A stretch of 64,000 bases of DNA from Bacillota bacterium. Its GTDB lineage: Bacteria; Bacillota; Clostridia; Caldicoprobacterales; Xylanivirgaceae. Shown one piece after another: positions 29,128 to 37,537 of this stretch; the first letter of the stretch is position 1, and each line of letters opens with the position of its first letter. Below the pieces are notes generated by a model, which was not told where the DNA came from, ran no database searches, and saw only the letters and a list, made by a program, of their open reading frames with translations. The stretch covers positions 1-64,000 of the forward strand of contig JAMOAB010000157.1 in NCBI GenBank assembly GCA_023621995.1, written 5' to 3'. The position numbers and the translations under genes are program-made.

Positions 29128-30870
29128 CTACACATATTTCTTTCGTTCTACATAGTGAGTATGGAGTATCTCATGTGCCTTTTTACTATTTGGTTCACCG
29201 AAATACTCGTCATATACCTTCTTGACTGATGGATTCTCATGGGACTTTCTAATTGGAAGATTTCTATCCTCTTCATATATTGCCTGTGCCCTAAGTGCCC
29301 ATACATCGTGGTCAAGTTTCGTCTTAGCATCCACTATAGGTTGGCCTCCACCTGTTATACAACCACCTGGACAGCCCATAACTTCTATAAAGTGATACTC
29401 CTTCTCACCAGACTTGACCTGTTCAATAAGTGCCTTGGCATTGGCAGTTCCGTGGGCTACTGCCGCTTTTATAATCATATCGCCAAGTGTAATGTTGGTC
29501 TCTTTCACACCATCCAAGCCTCTAACAGCAGTGACCTCTATGTCCTTCATAGGCTCTCCGGTTACAAGCTCTGCCACTGTTCTAAGGGCAGCTTCCATAA
29601 CCCCTCCGGTTGTGCCAAATATGACACCTGCACCTGTAGAATCACCAAGCGTTGGATCAAACTCTTCATCAGCCAAATTTACAAAGTCTATACCAGCTTC
29701 CTTGATCATTCTACCCAATTCACGGGTTGTAAGCACCACATCTACATCCGGATATCCAGATGTGCTAAGCTCCGGCCTTGCCGCCTCAAACTTTTTGGCA
29801 GTACATGGCATTATGGAGACTACAAATACTTTAGATGGATCTATCCCCTCTTTTTCGGCATAGTATGTCTTAAGTACTGCGCCCATCATTTCATGAGGTG
29901 ATTTGCATGTAGATAGGTTATCTAAAAATTCTGGATAGTTATGTTCACAGTACTTTATCCAACCTGGACTACAGGATGTTATAAGAGGTAGCTTACCTCC
30001 ATTATTAAGCCTATTTAAAAGCTCTGTTCCCTCTTCCATTATAGTAAGGTCAGCTGCAAAGTCGGTATCGAACACTTTATCAAAACCGAGCCGTCTTAAG
30101 GCTGCCACCATCTTACCTTTTACATTTGTACCTATTGGCATCCCAAACTCTTCTCCAAGGGCTACACGCACTGCTGGCGCGGTCTGTACAACCACATGTA
30201 AATCCTCATCATAAAGAGCGTCCCATACCTTTTCAGTATCATCCTTCTCCCTCAATGCACCTACTGGACAGGCCTCTATGCACTGACCACAATTAATACA
30301 TGGAACTTCTCCTATACTAAGATTAAATACCGGCTCTACCGATGTCTCAAAACCTCTCTCTGTTGCGCCAATTACACCTATCCCTTGGATATTTCTACAT
30401 ACAGAAATACATCGTCTGCAAAGAATACATTTATTCGGATCCCTAACTATTGAAGGCGATAAACTGTCTATCGTCTTCTTTGACATCTCTCCTTCAAACC
30501 GTATATCGTGAACGCCAAGCCTATCAGCAAGATCCTGAAGTTCACAATTTTGATTGCGTACACAGGTTAGACACTTTCTATCATGATTGGACAGTATGAG
30601 CTCTAGGTTTACACGCCTAGCTTCCCTCACCGCTGGAGTAGTTGTCATGACTTCCATACCATCGGTGACAGGAAGTACACAAGAAGCCTGTAGTGTTCTG
30701 GCTCCTTTGACCTCAACAAGACACATACGGCATGCTCCAACTTCATTTATACCCTTCAAATAGCATAGGGTAGGAATATCTATATTAGCTGCCCTAGCAG
30801 CTTCCAAAACAGTGCTGCCCTGTGGTACTTCTACCTTAACTCCGTCTATTGTTAGCTTAACCATTTCCAT
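29128..30870 (-). CDS. hydA: electron-bifurcating [FeFe]-hydrogenase catalytic subunit HydA
   Basis: 580 residues. An N-terminal [2Fe-2S] ferredoxin domain (GACRMC region, ~1-75) is followed by a His/Cys3 [4Fe-4S] segment (HDRKCLTCVRNQNCELQ) and two [4Fe-4S] sets (CILCRRCISVCR and CINCGQCIEACP). The H-cluster domain carries TSCSPGW, IMPCTAKKFEA and MGCPGGCITGGGQP. It produces H2 using electrons from ferredoxin and NADH with HydB and HydC. GGGGGAG sits eight bases before ATG 30870. Last gene of the hydC-HATPase-[2Fe-2S]-hydB-hydA operon; the short length compared with Thermotoga HydA is normal for clostridial enzymes. Confidence 0.95.
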   Translation of the reverse strand: MEMVKLTIDGVKVEVPQGSTVLEAARAANIDIPTLCYLKGINEVGACRMCLVEVKGARTLQASCVLPVTDGMEVMTTTPAVREARRVNLELILSNHDRKCLTCVRNQNCELQDLADRLGVHDIRFEGEMSKKTIDSLSPSIVRDPNKCILCRRCISVCRNIQGIGVIGATERGFETSVEPVFNLSIGEVPCINCGQCIEACPVGALREKDDTEKVWDALYDEDLHVVVQTAPAVRVALGEEFGMPIGTNVKGKMVAALRRLGFDKVFDTDFAADLTIMEEGTELLNRLNNGGKLPLITSCSPGWIKYCEHNYPEFLDNLSTCKSPHEMMGAVLKTYYAEKEGIDPSKVFVVSIMPCTAKKFEAARPELSTSGYPDVDVVLTTRELGRMIKEAGIDFVNLADEEFDPTLGDSTGAGVIFGTTGGVMEAALRTVAELVTGEPMKDIEVTAVRGLDGVKETNITLGDMIIKAAVAHGTANAKALIEQVKSGEKEYHFIEVMGCPGGCITGGGQPIVDAKTKLDHDVWALRAQAIYEEDRNLPIRKSHENPSVKKVYDEYFGEPNSKKAHEILHTHYVERKKYV

Positions 30871-30889: not shown

Positions 30890-32686
30890 TTATTTCTTCT
30901 CAATAGCGCGGAATGGACATTTACTCATACAAGCGCCACATTTTATACAAATATTTTCATCTATCTTAAATGGAGTCTTTCTCTCACCATTTATTGCATT
31001 AACTGGACAACTCTTGGCACATAGACCACACCCCTTACATTTCTCTTCTACTATTACATATTTAAGTAGTGCCTGACACACACCTGCAGGACATTTCTTG
31101 TCCCTTATATGTGCTTCATATTCATCTCTAAAGTACCTAAGGGTACTCAACACTGGATTGGGTGCCGTCTGTCCTAAACCACAAAGGGCGGAAGCACTTA
31201 TATTTTTAGCTAAAGTCTCTAGCTTCTCTATGTCACCTTCCTCACCTTTGCCACTGGTTATCTTATTGAGTATCTCCAACATACGCTTGGTTCCTATCCT
31301 ACATGGAGGGCATTTACCACATGACTCCTCCACTGTAAATTCAAGAAAGAATCTAGCAATATCTACCATGCAATTGTCCTCGTCCATTACTATGAGACCA
31401 CCTGATCCCATCATAGAACCAATCTCTATGAGAGAATCATAATCAATGGGGGTATCTAAGTGCTCAGCTGGAATACAACCTCCAGAAGGACCTCCTGTCT
31501 GAGCCGCTTTAAACTTCTTACCGCCAGGTATTCCTCCACCAATCTCATATACTATCTCCCTTAGCGTTGTACCCATGGGAATCTCTACAAGGCCTGTATT
31601 GTTTATATTGCCTCCCAAGGCAAAGACCTTAGTACCTTTACTTTTTTCAGTACCTATTTCCCTAAACTTTTCCGGTCCGTCTAGTATTATCTTAGTAATA
31701 TTTGCATATGTCTCAACGTTATTTAAGAGAGTAGGCTTTCCAAATACACCTTTTTGAGCAGGGAATGGTGGCCTTGGCCTTGGCTCTCCCCTATACCCTT
31801 CTATGGAAGCCATTAGGGCAGTCTCTTCGCCGCATACAAATGCGCCGGCGCCTAGTCTTATACCAATGTCAAAGCTAAAATCTGTTCCAAATATGTTCTC
31901 ACCTAACAGTCCGTATTCCTTTGCCTGATCTATAGCTATGGATAGTCTTTTGACAGCAATTGGATATTCAGCCCTTACATATATATAGCCCTGGTCTGCC
32001 CCCACTGCATAACCGGCTATTGTCATAGCCTCTAATACCGAATGGGGATCACCTTCTAATATACTTCTATCCATGAAGGCACCCGGGTCACCTTCGTCGG
32101 CATTACAGCATACATATTTTTTGTCGCCTTCTGCCTTGGCAGTAAATTCCCATTTAAGCCCTGCTGGGAAACCGGCTCCTCCACGTCCTCTAAGCCCTGA
32201 TGCCTTTATGGTATCTATTACCTCCTCAGGCTTCATTTCAGTGAGTACTTTTCCTAGAGCTTTATAGCCACCAAATGCTATATACTCATCTATATTTTCT
32301 GGATCTATGACTCCACAATGTCTCAAGGCAACACGTTTCTGTTTTTTATAAAAATCCATTTCATTTAGAGATTTAGCAGTTTCATCTTCATGCACTGCAT
32401 CATGATATAACAGCCTGGTCACAAGGCGACCCTTTAAGAGATGTTCAGATACTATCTCGGGTACATCCTCAGCTCTTATTCGACTATAAAATGCTCCTTC
32501 AGGATATACGATTACAATAGGTCCTACTTCACATAATCCAAAGCAACCTGTCCTTATGACTTTTACCTCATTTTGAAGATTGTTTTTTTCTAATTCCCTA
32601 TTAAAAACCTCTATTACATCATCTGACCCGGAAGAATGACATCCCGTCCCTCCACAGACCAGCACATGTGAACGATATAATTGCAT
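30890..32686 (-). CDS. hydB: bifurcating hydrogenase NADH/FMN subunit HydB (NuoF-like)
   Basis: 598 residues. The N-terminal thioredoxin-like [2Fe-2S] domain has [10 protein letters not shown] and [11 protein letters not shown]. The NuoF core holds the NADH/FMN site ([29 protein letters not shown]) and the [4Fe-4S] motif [10 protein letters not shown]. Two C-terminal [4Fe-4S] ferredoxin motifs follow ([24 protein letters not shown]). This is the flavin subunit where electrons from NADH and ferredoxin meet. It lies 28 bp after the small [2Fe-2S] gene and 20 bp before hydA. Confidence 0.95.
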
Positions 32687-32713: not shown

Positions 32714-33091
32714 CTATCTCTCTTCCTCTTCATATGCTCCGATTGTGTATTCACTTACTATTTGGCCATTGACTATATGGTTTGAGACAATTTTACTTAC
32801 TTTATCTGGTGTCACTTTCACATAGGTAACCTTTTCCTCTCCTGGCGTATATATCTCTACCATAGGTTCTAGTCTACAAACGCCTATACACCCAGTCTGT
32901 GTTACAATAACATTATTTAGATTTCTCTTGCTCACCTCGTCCAAAAAAGCAAGTAGTACAGGTCTTGCCCCTGCGGCTATTCCACAAGTGCCCATTCCTA
33001 CAACAACTCGGGTACCCTGCCTCTCCGTCCTTATATTCACAGATTCTAAGGTTTTCTTTCTTATCTCTTCTAACTCCTCTAAACTCTTCAT
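32714..33091 (-). CDS. small thioredoxin-like [2Fe-2S] ferredoxin protein
   Basis: 125 residues with the NuoE/HydB-N-type [2Fe-2S] fold: MGTCGIAAGARPV holds one cysteine and TQTGCIGVCRLEP two more. Only three of the usual four ligand cysteines are obvious in these motifs, so cluster binding is likely but not certain. Standalone copies of this domain are common within clostridial hydABC operons and may act as an additional electron carrier or assembly subunit. Its start codon overlaps the stop of the HATPase gene by one base. Confidence 0.82.
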   Translation of the reverse strand: MKSLEELEEIRKKTLESVNIRTERQGTRVVVGMGTCGIAAGARPVLLAFLDEVSKRNLNNVIVTQTGCIGVCRLEPMVEIYTPGEEKVTYVKVTPDKVSKIVSNHIVNGQIVSEYTIGAYEEEER

Positions 33092-33642
33092 TAAGTAGCA
33101 CCTCCACCTATTTTTTTTAGCCCACTTTCTATATATTCACCTATAAACTTAAGTATCTCAGGCTGGGCTATAGAAATTCCCGCTATCTTATTTTTGATAT
33201 CCCTTGTGTCGAAAAAAAATTTACCTCGATTTGTAATATGTGTATATATAAAATCTATATCTGGATTACATGCTATTAATGTAACTATGGTCTCATCGAT
33301 CTTGCCTAATGGTGGTCTGTCAATGTGGCTTATTTTAAATGCTGCCTTTATCTGTGTTCCCTCTCCTTGTTTCGATTCTATGTGAACATATCCATCGCTA
33401 CCCTCTGCCGATGCCTTTAAAAGTGGCAACCCAAGTCCTACTTTTCTTGTTGTTCTTGTAGTACAAAAAGGATTAAATATATGATCTACCATTTGCCCAT
33501 CCATGCCAACTCCGTTGTCGGAAATGGTAAAGGTTAAAAGATCTTTTTCTGCATCTTCATCTATCTCTATATATATGGTTGTACCTTGGGCGGCAATTGA
33601 GTTTTGTACAATATCTAATATGTGGAGCGATATATCCCTCAT
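33091..33642 (-). CDS. GHKL ATPase-domain protein inside the hydrogenase operon
   Basis: 183 residues with a histidine-kinase-type ATPase domain: N-box HILDIVQNSIAA, G1 box DNGVGMDG and G2 box GLGLPLLKA, over ~1-110. No phosphoacceptor histidine domain precedes it, so it is not a classical sensor kinase. The last ~70 residues are unassigned. It sits 2 bp downstream of hydC and overlaps the [2Fe-2S] gene, so it is translated with the hydrogenase. A regulatory or maturation function is inferred; comparable genes occur in the same place in other Clostridia. Confidence 0.8.
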   Translation of the reverse strand: MRDISLHILDIVQNSIAAQGTTIYIEIDEDAEKDLLTFTISDNGVGMDGQMVDHIFNPFCTTRTTRKVGLGLPLLKASAEGSDGYVHIESKQGEGTQIKAAFKISHIDRPPLGKIDETIVTLIACNPDIDFIYTHITNRGKFFFDTRDIKNKIAGISIAQPEILKFIGEYIESGLKKIGGGAT

Positions 33643-33644
33643 GA

Positions 33645-34127
33645 TTATTTATATTTTGCTATTATCTCTGGTATATCGTCTGGTTCTAATCTACCGTATA
33701 CATCGTCATTAATCATTATAACAGGTGCTAAACCGCATGCACCTAAACAACGGGTTGCCTCTAATGTAAATGTACCATCCTCTGTGGTTGCACCCACATC
33801 TATATTGAGTACTTTAGATAGCTCATCTAGCACTTTCTGTGCACCTTTAACATAGCAGGCAGTTCCTAAACATACACCTATACGGTATTTACCTTTAGGT
33901 TTTAAAGAAAATTGGGAATAAAACGTAGCAACACCGTAAACGTCAGTAATTGGGATATCTAACTCTTCTGCTATAAAGTCTTGTACCTCTATAGGTAGAT
34001 ATCCAAATATCTCCTGTGCTTCCTGCAATACAGGCATAAGTGGCCCTGGTTCTGATTTGTTTTTATCGATTACCTTTTGAAGTGCTTCAAACTTTTCTTT
34101 GTTTCTCTCAATAAAAGAAACTGACAT
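33645..34127 (-). CDS. hydC: bifurcating hydrogenase [2Fe-2S] subunit HydC (NuoE-like)
   Basis: 160 residues, full length for NuoE/HydC. The helical N-terminus (LMPVLQEAQEIFGYLP) and the thioredoxin-like domain with ligands in GVCLGTACYVKGA and TRCLGACGLAP are intact. It passes electrons between the flavin of HydB and the rest of the complex. I start at ATG 34127, five bases after a GGAGG core; an upstream in-frame start would add an unrelated hydrophobic stretch. First gene of the hydrogenase operon with a predicted promoter at 34217-34245. Confidence 0.95.
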   Translation of the reverse strand: MSVSFIERNKEKFEALQKVIDKNKSEPGPLMPVLQEAQEIFGYLPIEVQDFIAEELDIPITDVYGVATFYSQFSLKPKGKYRIGVCLGTACYVKGAQKVLDELSKVLNIDVGATTEDGTFTLEATRCLGACGLAPVIMINDDVYGRLEPDDIPEIIAKYK

Positions 34128-34216
34128 TGTTGTTCCCTCCCTCAACAAATATATGTCATTAGACTTGTATATGACAATCGTTTTGATAAAAAAATCACAA
34201 ACAATTGCCACACAAT

Positions 34217-34372: not shown

Positions 34373-35065
34373 TTATTTTCTAAACAATGATAGAAGGGCA
34401 TGTATTGTTGGTTCATCAAGGTCAACAAGCATTTTTCTCTCGAGAATTTCACCTAGATGGTGGGCATCAGATGACATTATGTAATTGAATTCCTTCAAAT
34501 TGAGCTTATCTACAGAAGACAGCTTGCTAATCTCTAATGTAGGTAGTTTGAGATCTGGAGGTACAAAACCTAATTGGGATAATATACTATAGCTCGTCCT
34601 ATCTACATGTGCAGGTATAACTACCCCATCCAGTTCTTCTACTGCTGCTATAATCTCTTCCACTGTCATATCTACAGATACCAATAAGAGTTCATCTCGT
34701 ATATCTATTATATTATCTAAATGATCTATTATATACTGGTTTCCAAAGATATGAGGATCGTTGGGGATTAAAGGTAATCTTTGTCTAATAATCCTATCAA
34801 ATTTGAATATGCTGGCTAAACAGCTGAAATAACACAAAAGATGGACTTCTTCCCGCGATTGTACTTCCATGCCTGGTATGACCAGAATATCATCTCCAGC
34901 CACTTCTATAACCGCTTCTATATTATCACAGCTATTATGATCAGTTATGGATATAATATCTAACCCCTTCAATATAGACATATTCACTATGTTGTTAGGA
35001 GTCATATCATCATCTGCGCATGGCGATAAGGCAGAATGAATATGAAGATCTATAGCATATTTCAT
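34373..35065 (-). CDS. PHP-domain phosphoesterase
   Basis: 230 residues with metal-binding PHP motifs: DLHIHSALSPCADDDMTP near the N-terminus (His about 8 and 10), SITDHNSC (Asp-His pair), IPGMEVQSREEVHLL, IPAHVDR, and SSDAHHLGEI at the end. These are the four PHP motifs in order, so a metal-dependent phosphoesterase activity is likely; substrate unknown. It is downstream of DRTGG-2 by 13 bp and closes the upstream sensory cluster. Homologues are regularly found beside sensory [FeFe]-hydrogenase genes in Clostridia. Confidence 0.88.
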   Translation of the reverse strand: MKYAIDLHIHSALSPCADDDMTPNNIVNMSILKGLDIISITDHNSCDNIEAVIEVAGDDILVIPGMEVQSREEVHLLCYFSCLASIFKFDRIIRQRLPLIPNDPHIFGNQYIIDHLDNIIDIRDELLLVSVDMTVEEIIAAVEELDGVVIPAHVDRTSYSILSQLGFVPPDLKLPTLEISKLSSVDKLNLKEFNYIMSSDAHHLGEILERKMLVDLDEPTIHALLSLFRK

Positions 35066-35078
35066 ATTGTAAACCCTC

Positions 35079-35423
35079 TTATTTGCAAGGTTTTACACCC
35101 ATATCATATAACCTGCCACAGATCTCAAATGCAGTCAATTTAGAAGCGATGATTGAAATTTTCTCTTCCTCTGCTTTTTGTAATGTTGTCTCTTCAACTT
35201 CAATTGACTCTGGCACCACTATGCAAGATATATCTAAGAGAGAAGCAACTGCAACAATATTTAAATGTGTTTGAACTGTTACCCACACACAGTTACTTCT
35301 GGCATTTGCCATAACATGACTTAAAAGGTCACATGAATATCCATATAAAATCTCTCTATCTGTATTTTGAGTAGAGGTTAATAAATTACCTTCAACACAT
35401 TCTACTACGTCCAATATGTTCAT
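35079..35423 (-). CDS. DRTGG-domain protein 2
   Basis: 114 residues of one DRTGG-like domain (PF07085 type). The pattern is an N-terminal ECVEGNLLTS, a central SDLLSHVMAN-like block (CDLLSHVMANARSN), and the end LTAFEICGRLYDMGV. It is clearly paralogous to the gene at 37193-37537, which aligns end to end (SDLMSDVLAFVEEG; YTLFEACGILYQAG). DRTGG domains occur beside CBS domains and in phosphotransacetylases, where they are thought to bind ligands or regulate. Its ATG overlaps the stop of the sensory hydrogenase gene by four bases. Confidence 0.78.
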   Translation of the reverse strand: MNILDVVECVEGNLLTSTQNTDREILYGYSCDLLSHVMANARSNCVWVTVQTHLNIVAVASLLDISCIVVPESIEVEETTLQKAEEEKISIIASKLTAFEICGRLYDMGVKPCK

Positions 35424-36745
35424 TTGCTATCATCCTCCCCATGCCTACCCGTAGGAATCTTTTCTGCTAGTTCAATCATCTCCTCAGCTAGCTCTTTGAC
35501 CCTTTCTCTTAATTTAAATACACAATCTAGTTCCGATGCTTCCCCCTGTACAATATCTTCCGCTAAAGTACGACAATTAGGTGAACCACAAGAACCACAA
35601 TCAAGCCCTGGTAGTGAATTAAATATCCTTTCCATCTTCTCCATCTTTTGAACAGCAAGGGTTAAATCGTCATCAAGTTTCATAACAGGCTTCGGTTGAA
35701 TATCTTCAGTGAACTCCCATCTTATAGAGTTCTTAGCAGCGTTAAACTCATTTTGGGTCAGAGAATATTTATCCATCTCATCCGTAAGTGTCTTTATTCG
35801 ATTTTTAGCTACGAACCCATTTTCAAAGGTTAAGGGGCCCCCTACACACCCCCCTACGCATGCAAGACCTTCAAAGAAATCCAAATCAGGGAATTTATTG
35901 TTTTCTATCTCTTCTAATACATGTATTACATTTTGGATGCCATCTACTGCAAGATAGCGTTCAACTGAAAGTGCGGCACACTCACCCGAGGAATTTGCCC
36001 ACCCTACACCATATGCAGAAGCCCGTTGCAGCCCTTCAATCTCCTGTAAGTCTCCTATTTTGCTGTTAAGTGCTCCATATATATCTAATATGGAAATAGC
36101 TCCATCCACCGTAGATTTTTCTTTTCCTATGGGCTTTTTTATACTAGTCATTTTTGCAGCACATGGAGTTATAAAAAATACACCTATATCCTCTTCTCTA
36201 GCACCAAACTTTTGATAAAACTCCTGTCTCGCTAGCTGGGCAGCTATCTCCATAGGTGATTCAATTGGAACAATATTTTCTATGAGTTCAGGAAATCTAA
36301 CTTGAATAAGCCTTACAATTGCAGGACATGCAGATGAGATTTGTGGTTTTTTTATACCTTTATTTTTTAACCATTCCTTTACAAAAGCCGTATTGTAATC
36401 GGCACCCTTAGCCACTTCATAAACATGATTAAATCCTAAGCTCTTAAGCGCACTGAGTATATAGTCTATATCAGATACATCTTTAAATTGTCCATACAAC
36501 GCAGGTGCAGGTAGCGCTATTCTATATGTAAATTTATATATTGATGACAGGGGATCAGTGACAGCAATTTTGGCATGATATGGACACACCCGTATACATT
36601 CTCCACAATCGATACATCTCTCAGCGATTATTCGTGCTTTACCTTCACGTACCCTTATTGCTTCTGTAGGACAGCGTTTTATACAATTTGTACATCCTTT
36701 ACACTTGTCCTTATCAAGGGTAACAGAATGATAATATCCACCCAT
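35420..36745 (-). CDS. sensory-type [FeFe]-hydrogenase (HydS-like)
   Basis: About 441 residues: two [4Fe-4S] ferredoxin motifs (CKGCTNCIKRCP; CIDCGECIRVCP), the H-cluster domain, then a C-terminal four-Cys [4Fe-4S] domain (CGSCGSPNCRTLAED plus a later Cys). The H-cluster motifs are degenerate: SSACPAIV replaces TSCCPxW, so the cysteine serving proton transfer in catalytic enzymes is Ala. TPCAAK and ACVGGCVGG keep the other ligands. Such changes mark the putative sensory group, which usually adds a PAS or kinase domain; here none follows. ATG 36745 is preferred, with AAGGTGG upstream. It is embedded between an RsbW-like ATPase and a DRTGG gene. Confidence 0.85.
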   Translation of the reverse strand: MGGYYHSVTLDKDKCKGCTNCIKRCPTEAIRVREGKARIIAERCIDCGECIRVCPYHAKIAVTDPLSSIYKFTYRIALPAPALYGQFKDVSDIDYILSALKSLGFNHVYEVAKGADYNTAFVKEWLKNKGIKKPQISSACPAIVRLIQVRFPELIENIVPIESPMEIAAQLARQEFYQKFGAREEDIGVFFITPCAAKMTSIKKPIGKEKSTVDGAISILDIYGALNSKIGDLQEIEGLQRASAYGVGWANSSGECAALSVERYLAVDGIQNVIHVLEEIENNKFPDLDFFEGLACVGGCVGGPLTFENGFVAKNRIKTLTDEMDKYSLTQNEFNAAKNSIRWEFTEDIQPKPVMKLDDDLTLAVQKMEKMERIFNSLPGLDCGSCGSPNCRTLAEDIVQGEASELDCVFKLRERVKELAEEMIELAEKIPTGRHGEDDSK

Positions 36746-36760
36746 ATATACCACCTTAAA

Positions 36761-37189
36761 TCATTTTAAATATATTTTTATTTGAAGTTTAGTACCTATT
36801 CCCGCATCTGAATGAATATTAAATTCATCAGCACATCGTTTCATATTTGAAAGCCCCATACCTGCACCAAATCCCATTTCCCTCGCTTCTTCTGGTGCAG
36901 TAGAGTAGCCTTCTTCCATTGCAAGGTCTATATCAGCTATTCCTGGACCTCCATCCTCAGATATTAGTAAGAGCTCATCGGGGGCAATCTTAATAGTAAG
37001 ACTCCCTCCCACAGAATGTATAACTAGGTTCATCTCTGCCTCATAGGCAGCAATTGCCATTCGACGAACAATGCCTCCATCAATGCCTAACTTCTTTAAA
37101 AGCCCCTTTATAGAACTAGATGCCTCTCCAGCCACTGCATAGTTGCCTGCCTCTATCGAATATGTATGTTCCATTATATATCTCTTCAT
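36761..37189 (-). CDS. RsbW/SpoIIAB-like serine kinase ATPase
   Basis: 142 residues of the GHKL anti-sigma/serine-kinase type: N-box AAYEAEMNLVIHS, G1 EDGGPGIAD and G2 MGFGAGMGLSNMKRCADEF. RsbW-like proteins bind ATP and phosphorylate an anti-anti-sigma partner or hold a sigma factor; no such partner gene is visible nearby. The start lies 3 bp after the DRTGG-1 stop. Within this cluster it may relay the state of the hydrogenase-like sensor; that is inference. Confidence 0.85.
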   Translation of the reverse strand: MKRYIMEHTYSIEAGNYAVAGEASSSIKGLLKKLGIDGGIVRRMAIAAYEAEMNLVIHSVGGSLTIKIAPDELLLISEDGGPGIADIDLAMEEGYSTAPEEAREMGFGAGMGLSNMKRCADEFNIHSDAGIGTKLQIKIYLK

Positions 37190-37192
37190 TGT

Positions 37193-37537
37193 TTAAGACT
37201 TCCCTTTTAAACCTGCTTGATAAAGTATACCACAGGCTTCAAATAATGTATAATCTGTTGACATGAGTGTAATATTTCTATCGTTGGCCATATCAATTAC
37301 ATCATTGGCAGGTACCTTTCCCCTGACAAATACAATCACAAACACATCTATCATTTCTGCAGTACGTATTACCTGGAGATTTGTAATTCCTGTAAGGAGA
37401 AGTGTCCCCTCCTCTACAAATGCCAACACATCACTCATTAGGTCAGAGCCACAAGCAAACTTTACTTCTCTATCAAGATTTACACTACCTGCCAGTATAT
37501 CAGCCTTCAATAATCTAGCTACCTCCCGTATTTGCAA
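37193..37537 (-). CDS. DRTGG-domain protein 1
   Basis: 114 residues, one DRTGG-like domain (VNLDREVKFACGSDLMSDVLAF). The same length and end-to-end resemblance to 35079-35423 show a duplicated gene flanking the RsbW-like and sensory hydrogenase genes. Probably a ligand-binding regulatory module. It starts the tightly spaced group 37537 to 35079 and follows the SPOR-domain gene by 13 bp, so it may be co-transcribed with it. Confidence 0.78.
   Translation of the reverse strand: MQIREVARLLKADILAGSVNLDREVKFACGSDLMSDVLAFVEEGTLLLTGITNLQVIRTAEMIDVFVIVFVRGKVPANDVIDMANDRNITLMSTDYTLFEACGILYQAGLKGKS

What the first reader, a model, noticed from the sequence alone, without database searches (positions are those of the whole stretch)
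35420..36745. Sensory-type [FeFe]-hydrogenase with an Ala at the proton-relay position and no PAS or kinase domain
Motif L1 reads SSACPAIV rather than TSCCPxW, so the Cys used for proton transfer in catalytic enzymes is Ala, while the other ligand motifs (TPCAAK, ACVGGC) are kept. Most sensory hydrogenases of similar length carry a PAS or kinase output domain; here the C-terminus ends in a four-Cys Fe-S domain. Output may be through separate proteins encoded next door.
Basis: partly seen in the sequence, partly recalled or inferred. Interest (0 to 1): 0.5.

Follow-up and report, generated by a model that had tools for sequence, protein, structure and literature searches.

The report
Known-type hydrogen sensor with kinase partner
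This is another copy of a known family of slow, probably hydrogen-sensing iron enzymes; what is useful is that its gene nearly always sits beside a gene for a predicted small protein kinase, a strong candidate for the unknown partner that passes on its signal.

Summary
Observation confirmed. The minus-strand gene (35420-36745) encodes an [FeFe]-hydrogenase with Ala at the proton-relay position, intact H-cluster cysteines and a C-terminal Cx2Cx4Cx16C domain. This is the group D (M2e) type, characterised in print as TamHydS. Lacking PAS is a defining trait of that group, and the residues proposed as its alternative proton path are present (S255, E258, D271, E295). So: a new member of a known kind. 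What I add is context. A gene for a SpoIIAB/RsbW-like ATPase (KIN1, 36761-37189) tracks group D HydS: among 291 genomes of the window's class 136 have both, 2 HydS only, 3 KIN1 only, 150 neither. KIN1 lies directly upstream in 132 of 139 loci. Two DRTGG proteins and a PHP-domain protein usually complete the module, which continues into bifurcating hydABC in about two thirds of assessable named loci. One genome adds a SpoIIE-type phosphatase gene; another organism joins DRTGG and KIN1 in one frame. The 2026 TamHydS paper calls identifying interaction partners critical; KIN1 is a testable candidate. H2 sensing by this copy, KIN1 activity and its substrate are inferred, not shown.

The parts
35420..36745 (-). 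hydS: group D (M2e) [FeFe]-hydrogenase, 441 aa from ATG (444 aa from an upstream GTG at 36754)
36584..36703 (-). N-terminal pair of 4Fe-4S motifs (C18, C21, C24, C28; C47, C50, C53, C57)
   Evidence: Pfam Fer4; each Cys in 109 of 109 rows
36329..36331 (-). codon of A142, at the position of the proton-relay Cys (C299 of CpI, A137 of TamHydS)
35981..35983 (-). codon of E258, counterpart of TamHydS E252, first residue of the alternative proton path proposed for group D
35522..35599 (-). C-terminal Cx2Cx4Cx16C Fe-S motif (PF04060)
   Evidence: the four Cys in 107 to 108 of 109 rows
36761..37189 (-). KIN1: small HATPase protein of SpoIIAB/RsbW type, candidate signalling partner of HydS
   Evidence: Pfam HATPase_c; NCBIfam spIIAB 48.7 bits, below its cut-off of 135; the 4 PDB sequences matched at E 0.01 are all SpoIIAB, E 0.002-0.004; linkage
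37193..37537 (-). DRTGG1: stand-alone DRTGG-domain protein
   Evidence: Pfam; AlphaFold model pLDDT 92, best match 2ioj Z 17.7, rmsd 1.9 over 113
35079..35423 (-). DRTGG2: second DRTGG-like protein (Pfam score below the curated cut-off in this copy, above it in T. wiegelii)
34373..35065 (-). PHP-domain protein with conserved His/Asp/Glu positions (putative phosphoesterase)
33645..34130 (-). hydC (2Fe-2S thioredoxin-like subunit) of the bifurcating hydrogenase
33091..33642 (-). KIN2: second HATPase protein, within the hydABC part of the cluster
32714..33091 (-). 2Fe-2S ferredoxin-like protein (FD2)
30890..32686 (-). hydB (NuoF-like)
29128..30870 (-). hydA, catalytic group A [FeFe]-hydrogenase with Cys at the relay position
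   Evidence: NCBIfam FeFe_hydrog_A6, 944.6 bits against a cut-off of 765

Best explanation
hydS encodes a group D [FeFe]-hydrogenase that binds and slowly turns over H2 at an H-cluster served by the group D glutamate path rather than the Cys path. It most likely acts as a sensor of H2 or of ferredoxin redox state. Its output is carried by the neighbouring KIN1, a SpoIIAB/RsbW-type kinase: reduction of HydS, or its H2-induced shape change, alters KIN1, which phosphorylates a Ser/Thr of a partner (possibly the DRTGG proteins), with a phosphatase (the PHP protein, or the SpoIIE-type enzyme tied to group C sensors) opposing it. The result would set expression or activity of the downstream HydABC. 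Shown here: family membership, relay residues, KIN1 linkage. Shown in print for TamHydS: slow bidirectional turnover and a secondary-structure change with H2. Inferred: that this copy senses H2, that KIN1 is an active kinase, its substrate, and the target.
For: Group D membership: the sequence traits tested are met, and the D sequences form one clade with 99 support, 100 on the unrooted branch to the rest. HydF and HydG genes over their cut-offs are in the genome. KIN1 co-occurrence over the same 291 genomes: both 136, HydS only 2 (G049 and G084, both with the HydS frame at a contig end), KIN1 only 3, neither 150; KIN1 upstream on the same strand in 132 of 139 HydS loci, within 150 bp in 124, median distance between the matched stretches 37 bp. 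Of the 7 misses, five lie at contig ends or breaks and two are real. In 80 named loci, counting only loci with room: KIN1 72 of 72, DRTGG1 66 of 72, DRTGG2 64 of 73, PHP 54 of 62, HYDC 39 of 58, HYDB 36 of 54, HYDA 35 of 49 (a looser count is), so the KIN1 link is tighter than that to the catalytic operon. KIN1 keeps E50 and N54 in 79 of 79 rows with a residue there, and D79, G81 and three lid glycines in 80 of 80; E50/N54 align with the SpoIIAB N-box (that this Glu is the catalytic base there is recalled). In G211 and G269, where HydS lies elsewhere, DRTGG1-KIN1-DRTGG2-PHP-KIN2 are together. Tepidanaerobacter has one open frame carrying DRTGG and KIN1. In G096 a SpoIIE-type phosphatase frame ends 34 bp before the DRTGG1 frame in the same run of genes.
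Against: No experiment on this protein. KIN1 scores far below the NCBIfam cut-off for SpoIIAB, and its PDB matches are weak. No sigma factor or STAS protein was found in the window's module by Pfam. The four STAS hits of the genome lie elsewhere: one in a SpoIIAA-SpoIIAB-SigF-like cluster, one next to RsbW-like and sigma-like frames, one by a CheA-like frame, one beside an ECF-sigma-like frame without a kinase in its 1.5-kb flanks (these labels are my reading of the frames, no search). The phosphatase-in-operon case is 1 of 46 genomes that hold both genes (next nearest pair about 200 kb apart on one contig), and phosphatase/HydS-D co-occurrence is weak (46 both, 92 D only, 34 phosphatase only, 119 neither; Fisher p 0.036, not corrected for relatedness). 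L065, L091 and L112 have KIN1-HydS without DRTGG or PHP, so DRTGG cannot be the universal substrate. G226 has KIN1, DRTGG2, PHP, hydC and hydB without HydS there, and no HydS-D hit at E 1e-40. L125, L133 and L134 HydS lack the relay Glu and the PCxAK Lys yet keep the module. [quoted passage not shown]
Confidence: 0.6

Rival explanations
1. HydS is a slow catalytic enzyme (for example an H2-uptake or redox valve that draws electrons from H2 into its Fe-S chain) and the neighbours are merely operon companions.
For: TamHydS oxidises and makes H2, faster in oxidation under the assay conditions used (PMC10407848, passages); relay residues are kept almost without exception (E258 in 107 of 109, E295 and D271 in 109 of 109 rows), which selection for mere binding would not obviously need.
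Against: Published specific activity of TamHydS is about 0.1 umol per mg per min; one gene, for a kinase-like ATPase, follows HydS more tightly than hydABC does.
Confidence: 0.15
2. HydS is a sensor, but KIN1, the DRTGG proteins and PHP act mainly on the HydABC enzyme itself (allosteric or covalent control of the bifurcating hydrogenase) rather than on transcription.
For: The module is followed by hydC in 39 of 58 named loci with room; a second HATPase (KIN2) is usually inside the hydABC part (38 of 58) and lies with the module in G211 and G269.
Against: The module is complete in loci with no hydABC within the 8 to 10 kb held downstream (for example L042, L044, L046, L057).
Confidence: 0.2
3. 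HydS is a pseudo-hydrogenase that does not bind H2 and serves as a redox relay or scaffold for KIN1.
For: A divergent clade (L125, L133, L134) keeps the module while lacking the Lys of PCxAK and the relay Glu, and L142/L143 have Gln for E258 and Arg for the Lys.
Against: The window copy and nearly all of the 109 rows keep the ligands and the group D relay; TamHydS, with the same residues, is active in print.
Confidence: 0.05

Closest known systems
TamHydS, group D/M2e [FeFe]-hydrogenase of Thermoanaerobacter mathranii (PMC8163306, PMC10407848, PMC13104023)
   Same: Ala at the C299 position, Ser/Thr at the M353 position (Thr here), Leu at the M497 position, two N-terminal 4Fe-4S motifs, Cx2Cx4Cx16C C-terminal domain, no PAS, upstream of a bifurcating group A hydrogenase, relay residues S/E/D/E. 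Compared through the T. wiegelii protein (L069), whose numbering matches the published A137, S249, E252, D265 and E289.
   Different: Thr for Ser at the M353 position. Land 2020 reports an AraC-family gene as one flank; the direct neighbours here and in T. wiegelii are KIN1 and a DRTGG protein in which Pfam finds no AraC domain. The T. mathranii locus itself was not in hand.
TmHydS and other group C sensory hydrogenases, including the putative phosphatase-linked C3 type (HydDB, PMC5037454, table passage)
   Same: H-domain plus C-terminal Fe-S domain, putative sensor.
   Different: Group C carries PAS; the group C-like copy of this genome (L115) is a 581-aa frame with PAS, followed by a SpoIIE-type phosphatase gene, and has Cys at the relay position. 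TmHydS itself was not compared.
SpoIIAB / RsbW anti-sigma serine kinases (for KIN1)
   Same: HATPase family by Pfam, N-box Glu and Asn, SpoIIAB the only PDB sequences matched at E 0.01.
   Different: Well below the curated SpoIIAB cut-off; no STAS partner or sigma factor beside it; lies with HydS and DRTGG genes instead.
DRTGG domains of AF1212 and of the Clostridium perfringens CBS-DRTGG pyrophosphatase
   Same: Same fold for DRTGG1 (Z 17.7, rmsd 1.9 over 113; Z 14.5, rmsd 2.3 over 108).
   Different: Stand-alone proteins here, usually two per cluster; DRTGG1 carries a near-universal DLMSD motif, DRTGG2 a DLLS motif.

Membership tests
Group D (M2e) [FeFe]-hydrogenase | Cys299 (CpI) replaced, usually by Ala | tested here: met
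   A142; 105 of 109 rows Ala
Group D (M2e) [FeFe]-hydrogenase | Hydroxyl residue at the M353 position | tested here: met
   T196; 108 of 109 rows Thr or Ser
Group D (M2e) [FeFe]-hydrogenase | C-terminal Cx2Cx4Cx16C domain and no PAS | tested here: met
   FeS domain in 29 of 29 and PAS in 0 of 29 members
Group D (M2e) [FeFe]-hydrogenase | Group D proton path E252, E289, D265, S249 | tested here: met
   E258, E295, D271, S255
Group D (M2e) [FeFe]-hydrogenase | Clade separate from groups A and C | tested here: met
   37-sequence tree: 20 D sequences monophyletic, 99 support. D reference is T. wiegelii, not TamHydS; the 9 C frames had 59 support and the 8 A-labelled frames were not one clade in the midpoint-rooted tree
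Group D (M2e) [FeFe]-hydrogenase | Often in one operon with a group A hydrogenase | tested here: met
   hydA (A6) downstream; HYDA 35 of 49 named loci with room; transcription not tested
Group D (M2e) [FeFe]-hydrogenase | Low turnover, H2 affinity, H-cluster states of TamHydS | not testable with these tools
   needs purified, matured protein
Group C sensory [FeFe]-hydrogenase | C-terminal PAS domain | tested here: not met
   no PAS; outside the C frames in the tree
Group A catalytic [FeFe]-hydrogenase | Relay Cys and Met at the 299 and 353 positions | tested here: not met
   Ala and Thr; NCBIfam group A models far below cut-off
SpoIIAB/RsbW kinase (KIN1) | N-box Glu and Asn, DxGxG, glycine-rich lid | tested here: met
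   79 of 79 and 80 of 80 rows with a residue there
SpoIIAB/RsbW kinase (KIN1) | Curated equivalog score | tested here: not met
   48.7 bits against a cut-off of 135; 55.4 in T. wiegelii
SpoIIAB/RsbW kinase (KIN1) | Kinase activity on a STAS or other partner | not testable with these tools
   assay needed

The most novel reading that the evidence does not exclude
Group D HydS is the H2 input of a self-contained protein-phosphorylation switch unlike two-component systems: HydS controls an obligate RsbW-type kinase (KIN1), the stand-alone DRTGG proteins with their invariant serine (DLMS/DLLS) play the part that STAS proteins play elsewhere, and the PHP protein and/or the SpoIIE-type phosphatase of group C sensors undo it, so that two kinds of sensory hydrogenase drive opposite arms (kinase and phosphatase) of one H2 response.
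Probability: 0.25. Interest if true: 0.7.

Novelty: new member of a known kind. Interest (0 to 1): 0.42.

Why it matters
How group D sensory hydrogenases pass on a signal without PAS is stated as open in Land 2020 (conclusions), and Schumann 2026 calls identification of the interaction partners critical (conclusion passage). A gene found together with group D HydS in 136 of the 141 genomes holding either one is a concrete partner to test. If the kinase reading holds, H2 sensing in these bacteria would run through serine/threonine phosphorylation.

Tried and rejected
Rejected: that missing PAS or kinase domains make this copy unusual (PAS in 0 of 29 group D members). Rejected: that it is group A or C. 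Rejected: that HydABC is its tightest partner.

Led nowhere: an alignment of the DRTGG-KIN1 fusion with separate DRTGG and KIN1 rows (A2) seemed to place the DRTGG rows wrongly and was dropped, so no fusion model was made. No NCBIfam model passed its cut-off on HydS among the 25 of 66 matches shown. The VIA-align list for HydS barely tests the C-terminal domain. A first tree run failed for its thread number and was rerun.

Papers: searches for DRTGG with hydrogenase (one paper, not opened, one mention of each), HydS/RsbW/PHP terms (8 listed), anti-sigma/partner switching/hydrogen sensing (1 listed), HydABC/PHP/histidine kinase-like ATPase (12 of 93 listed), a mixed set (15 of 129 listed), and (20 of 44 listed) showed no title or start of abstract that describes the module. 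Not held, so not seen: Calusinska 2010 and the 2016 BBA paper on unification of [FeFe]-hydrogenases. Most subscription papers are not in the library.

Caveats on counts: the 109 rows pool 29 sequences of A1 with 80 named loci and hold some genomes twice (equal contig lengths). One search counted a found gene as assessable even where room was short and marked a few genes missing by its distance rules (L077 and L086 have DRTGG2, L098 has PHP further off, L103 has DRTGG1 fused to KIN1); one search counts only loci with room. In one search G283, whose only hit is a 578-aa group C-like frame, and the other hits under 160 bits were left out of the HydS-D list. Group labels in the tree are mine.

Full report
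The finding. The gene is real and as described: a minus-strand frame with two ferredoxin-type 4Fe-4S motifs, an [FeFe]-hydrogenase H-domain and a C-terminal four-Cys Fe-S domain. Ala (A142) stands where the window's own group A hydrogenase HydA has the relay Cys. The AlphaFold model (mean pLDDT 83.2) matches solved [FeFe]-hydrogenases (CbA5H Z 32.8, rmsd 3.0 over 345; CpI 4xdc Z 30.3, rmsd 3.3 over 350), mainly over residues 5-358.

What it is. The introduction of Land et al. 2020 (PMC8163306, read) describes the M2e subclass, or group D, by these traits: relay Cys not conserved, Ser/Thr for Met353, C-terminal Cx2Cx4Cx16C, no PAS, often on an operon with a group A enzyme. All are met here. With T. 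wiegelii HydS (L069) as a stand-in for TamHydS, the published numbers A137, S249, E252, D265 and E289 fall on the expected residues, and the window protein has A142, S255, E258, D271 and E295 at these places. In a tree of 37 sequences the 20 group D sequences form one clade. At E 1e-40 a match was found in 139 of 291 genomes of the window's class, 138 after leaving out G283, whose hit is group C-like. It is a common protein type.

How the enzyme part works. From print (sections and passages): TamHydS is slow (about 0.1 umol per mg per min), works in both directions, loses activity when E252 or E289 is changed, and changes secondary structure with H2, while its C-terminal cluster is not reduced by H2. 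The window protein shares the residues, so the same behaviour is the best guess. The genome holds HydG and HydF genes over their cut-offs, so an H-cluster can probably be made; HydE was not searched for.

The neighbours. Directly upstream lies KIN1, a 142-aa HATPase protein; the four PDB sequences it matches at E 0.01 are all SpoIIAB, weakly (E 0.002 to 0.004). I searched the same 291 genomes with HydS and KIN1 (E 1e-20): 136 have both, 2 HydS alone, 3 KIN1 alone, 150 neither; KIN1 is upstream on the same strand in 132 of 139 HydS loci, within 150 bp in 124. Of the 7 exceptions, three HydS frames start within about 100 bp of a contig start (G273, G011, G049), one lies at a contig end (G084) and one seems split between contigs (G128); in G211 and G269 HydS lies elsewhere while DRTGG1-KIN1-DRTGG2-PHP-KIN2 are together. 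As a control, the SpoIIE-type phosphatase linked to group C sensors gave 46 both, 92 D only, 34 phosphatase only, 119 neither.

Eighty named loci from another scan, counting only loci with room, give KIN1 72 of 72, DRTGG1 66 of 72, DRTGG2 64 of 73, PHP 54 of 62, HYDC 39 of 58, KIN2 38 of 58, FD2 39 of 58, HYDB 36 of 54, HYDA 35 of 49 (the looser count gave KIN1 79 of 79, HYDC 45 of 66, HYDA 39 of 56). KIN1 keeps its N-box Glu and Asn in 79 of 79 rows with a residue there and the tested Asp and glycines in 80 of 80. DRTGG1 (75 rows) keeps D32, S35 and D36, DRTGG2 (68 rows) D32 and S35, and the PHP rows (68) D6, H8, H10, D42, H43, E67, H75, H153, D200 and H202, each at 100% of rows with a residue there. 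That the last are metal ligands of the PHP fold is recalled, not computed. The two DRTGG hits of this genome are both in the module.

Two natural cases tie the parts together. Tepidanaerobacter sp. GT38 has a single 314-aa open frame (stop to stop) with a DRTGG domain followed by KIN1. In genome G096 a SpoIIE-type phosphatase frame of the group C-linked kind ends 34 bp before the frame of DRTGG1, followed by KIN1-HydS-DRTGG2-PHP-HydC, all on one strand; among the 46 genomes with both genes it is the only such case. The window's genome has its own group C-like sensor with PAS followed by such a phosphatase gene on another contig, the arrangement HydDB lists as C3, putatively phosphatase-linked (PMC5037454 table passage).

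Against my reading. No sigma factor or STAS protein was found in the module; KIN1 is well below the SpoIIAB cut-off; L065, L091 and L112 have KIN1-HydS without DRTGG or PHP; G226 has KIN1, DRTGG2 and PHP without HydS beside them; the phosphatase link rests on one genome; the divergent HydS of L125, L133 and L134 lack the relay Glu and the PCxAK Lys. So KIN1 as the partner is well supported by linkage, but what it phosphorylates, and whether H2 is the signal, remain inference.

Against the literature. [quoted passage not shown] The first is probably KIN1, which by sequence resembles SpoIIAB/RsbW. In T. wiegelii the other direct neighbour is a DRTGG protein with a PucR match below cut-off and no AraC domain in Pfam; I suspect, but cannot show, that the published AraC label refers to such a protein. 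In my searches and in word searches of three later TamHydS papers ('kinase' 0 times in each) I saw no description of the KIN1-DRTGG-PHP module; listings were partial, and papers outside the library may have it.

Verdict. Ordinary as a hydrogenase: a new member of group D. The linked kinase-like gene makes an open question testable.

Noticed in passing
L115:3088-7489 (own genome, contig C28): Second putative sensor: group C-like HydS with PAS (Cys at the relay position), then a SpoIIE-type phosphatase gene, then another [FeFe]-hydrogenase; resembles the hfsBCD arrangement described for Thermoanaerobacterium (passage).
   Followed up: partly
L125:2397-6674: SpoIIE-type phosphatase gene in the same run as DRTGG1-KIN1-HydS-DRTGG2-PHP, the only such case among 46 genomes with both genes.
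   Followed up: partly
L125, L133, L134 (HydS frames): Divergent HydS keep all H-cluster Cys but lack the relay Glu, the Ala and the Lys of PCxAK, and no KIN2 was found in their hydC-FD2-hydB stretch; possible loss of H2 turnover with the module kept.
   Followed up: partly
L065:9487-13311: KIN1-HydS(D) followed by a 638-aa frame with an [FeFe]-hydrogenase domain, FeS domain and methyl-accepting chemotaxis signalling domain.
   Followed up: no
L091:9062-11311: CheW gene directly upstream of KIN1-HydS, in a locus without DRTGG or PHP.
   Followed up: no
L103:9034-9975: Single open frame joining a DRTGG domain to KIN1 (Tepidanaerobacter sp. GT38).
   Followed up: partly
L136:6034-8216 and L137:5570-7528: In the two genomes with HydS elsewhere, KIN2 is followed by an RnfC-like protein (RnfC_N, Complex1_51K, SLBB) instead of hydABC.
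   Followed up: no
window 33091-33642: KIN2, a second HATPase protein inside the hydABC part of the cluster, of unknown role; present in 38 of 58 named loci with room.
   Followed up: no
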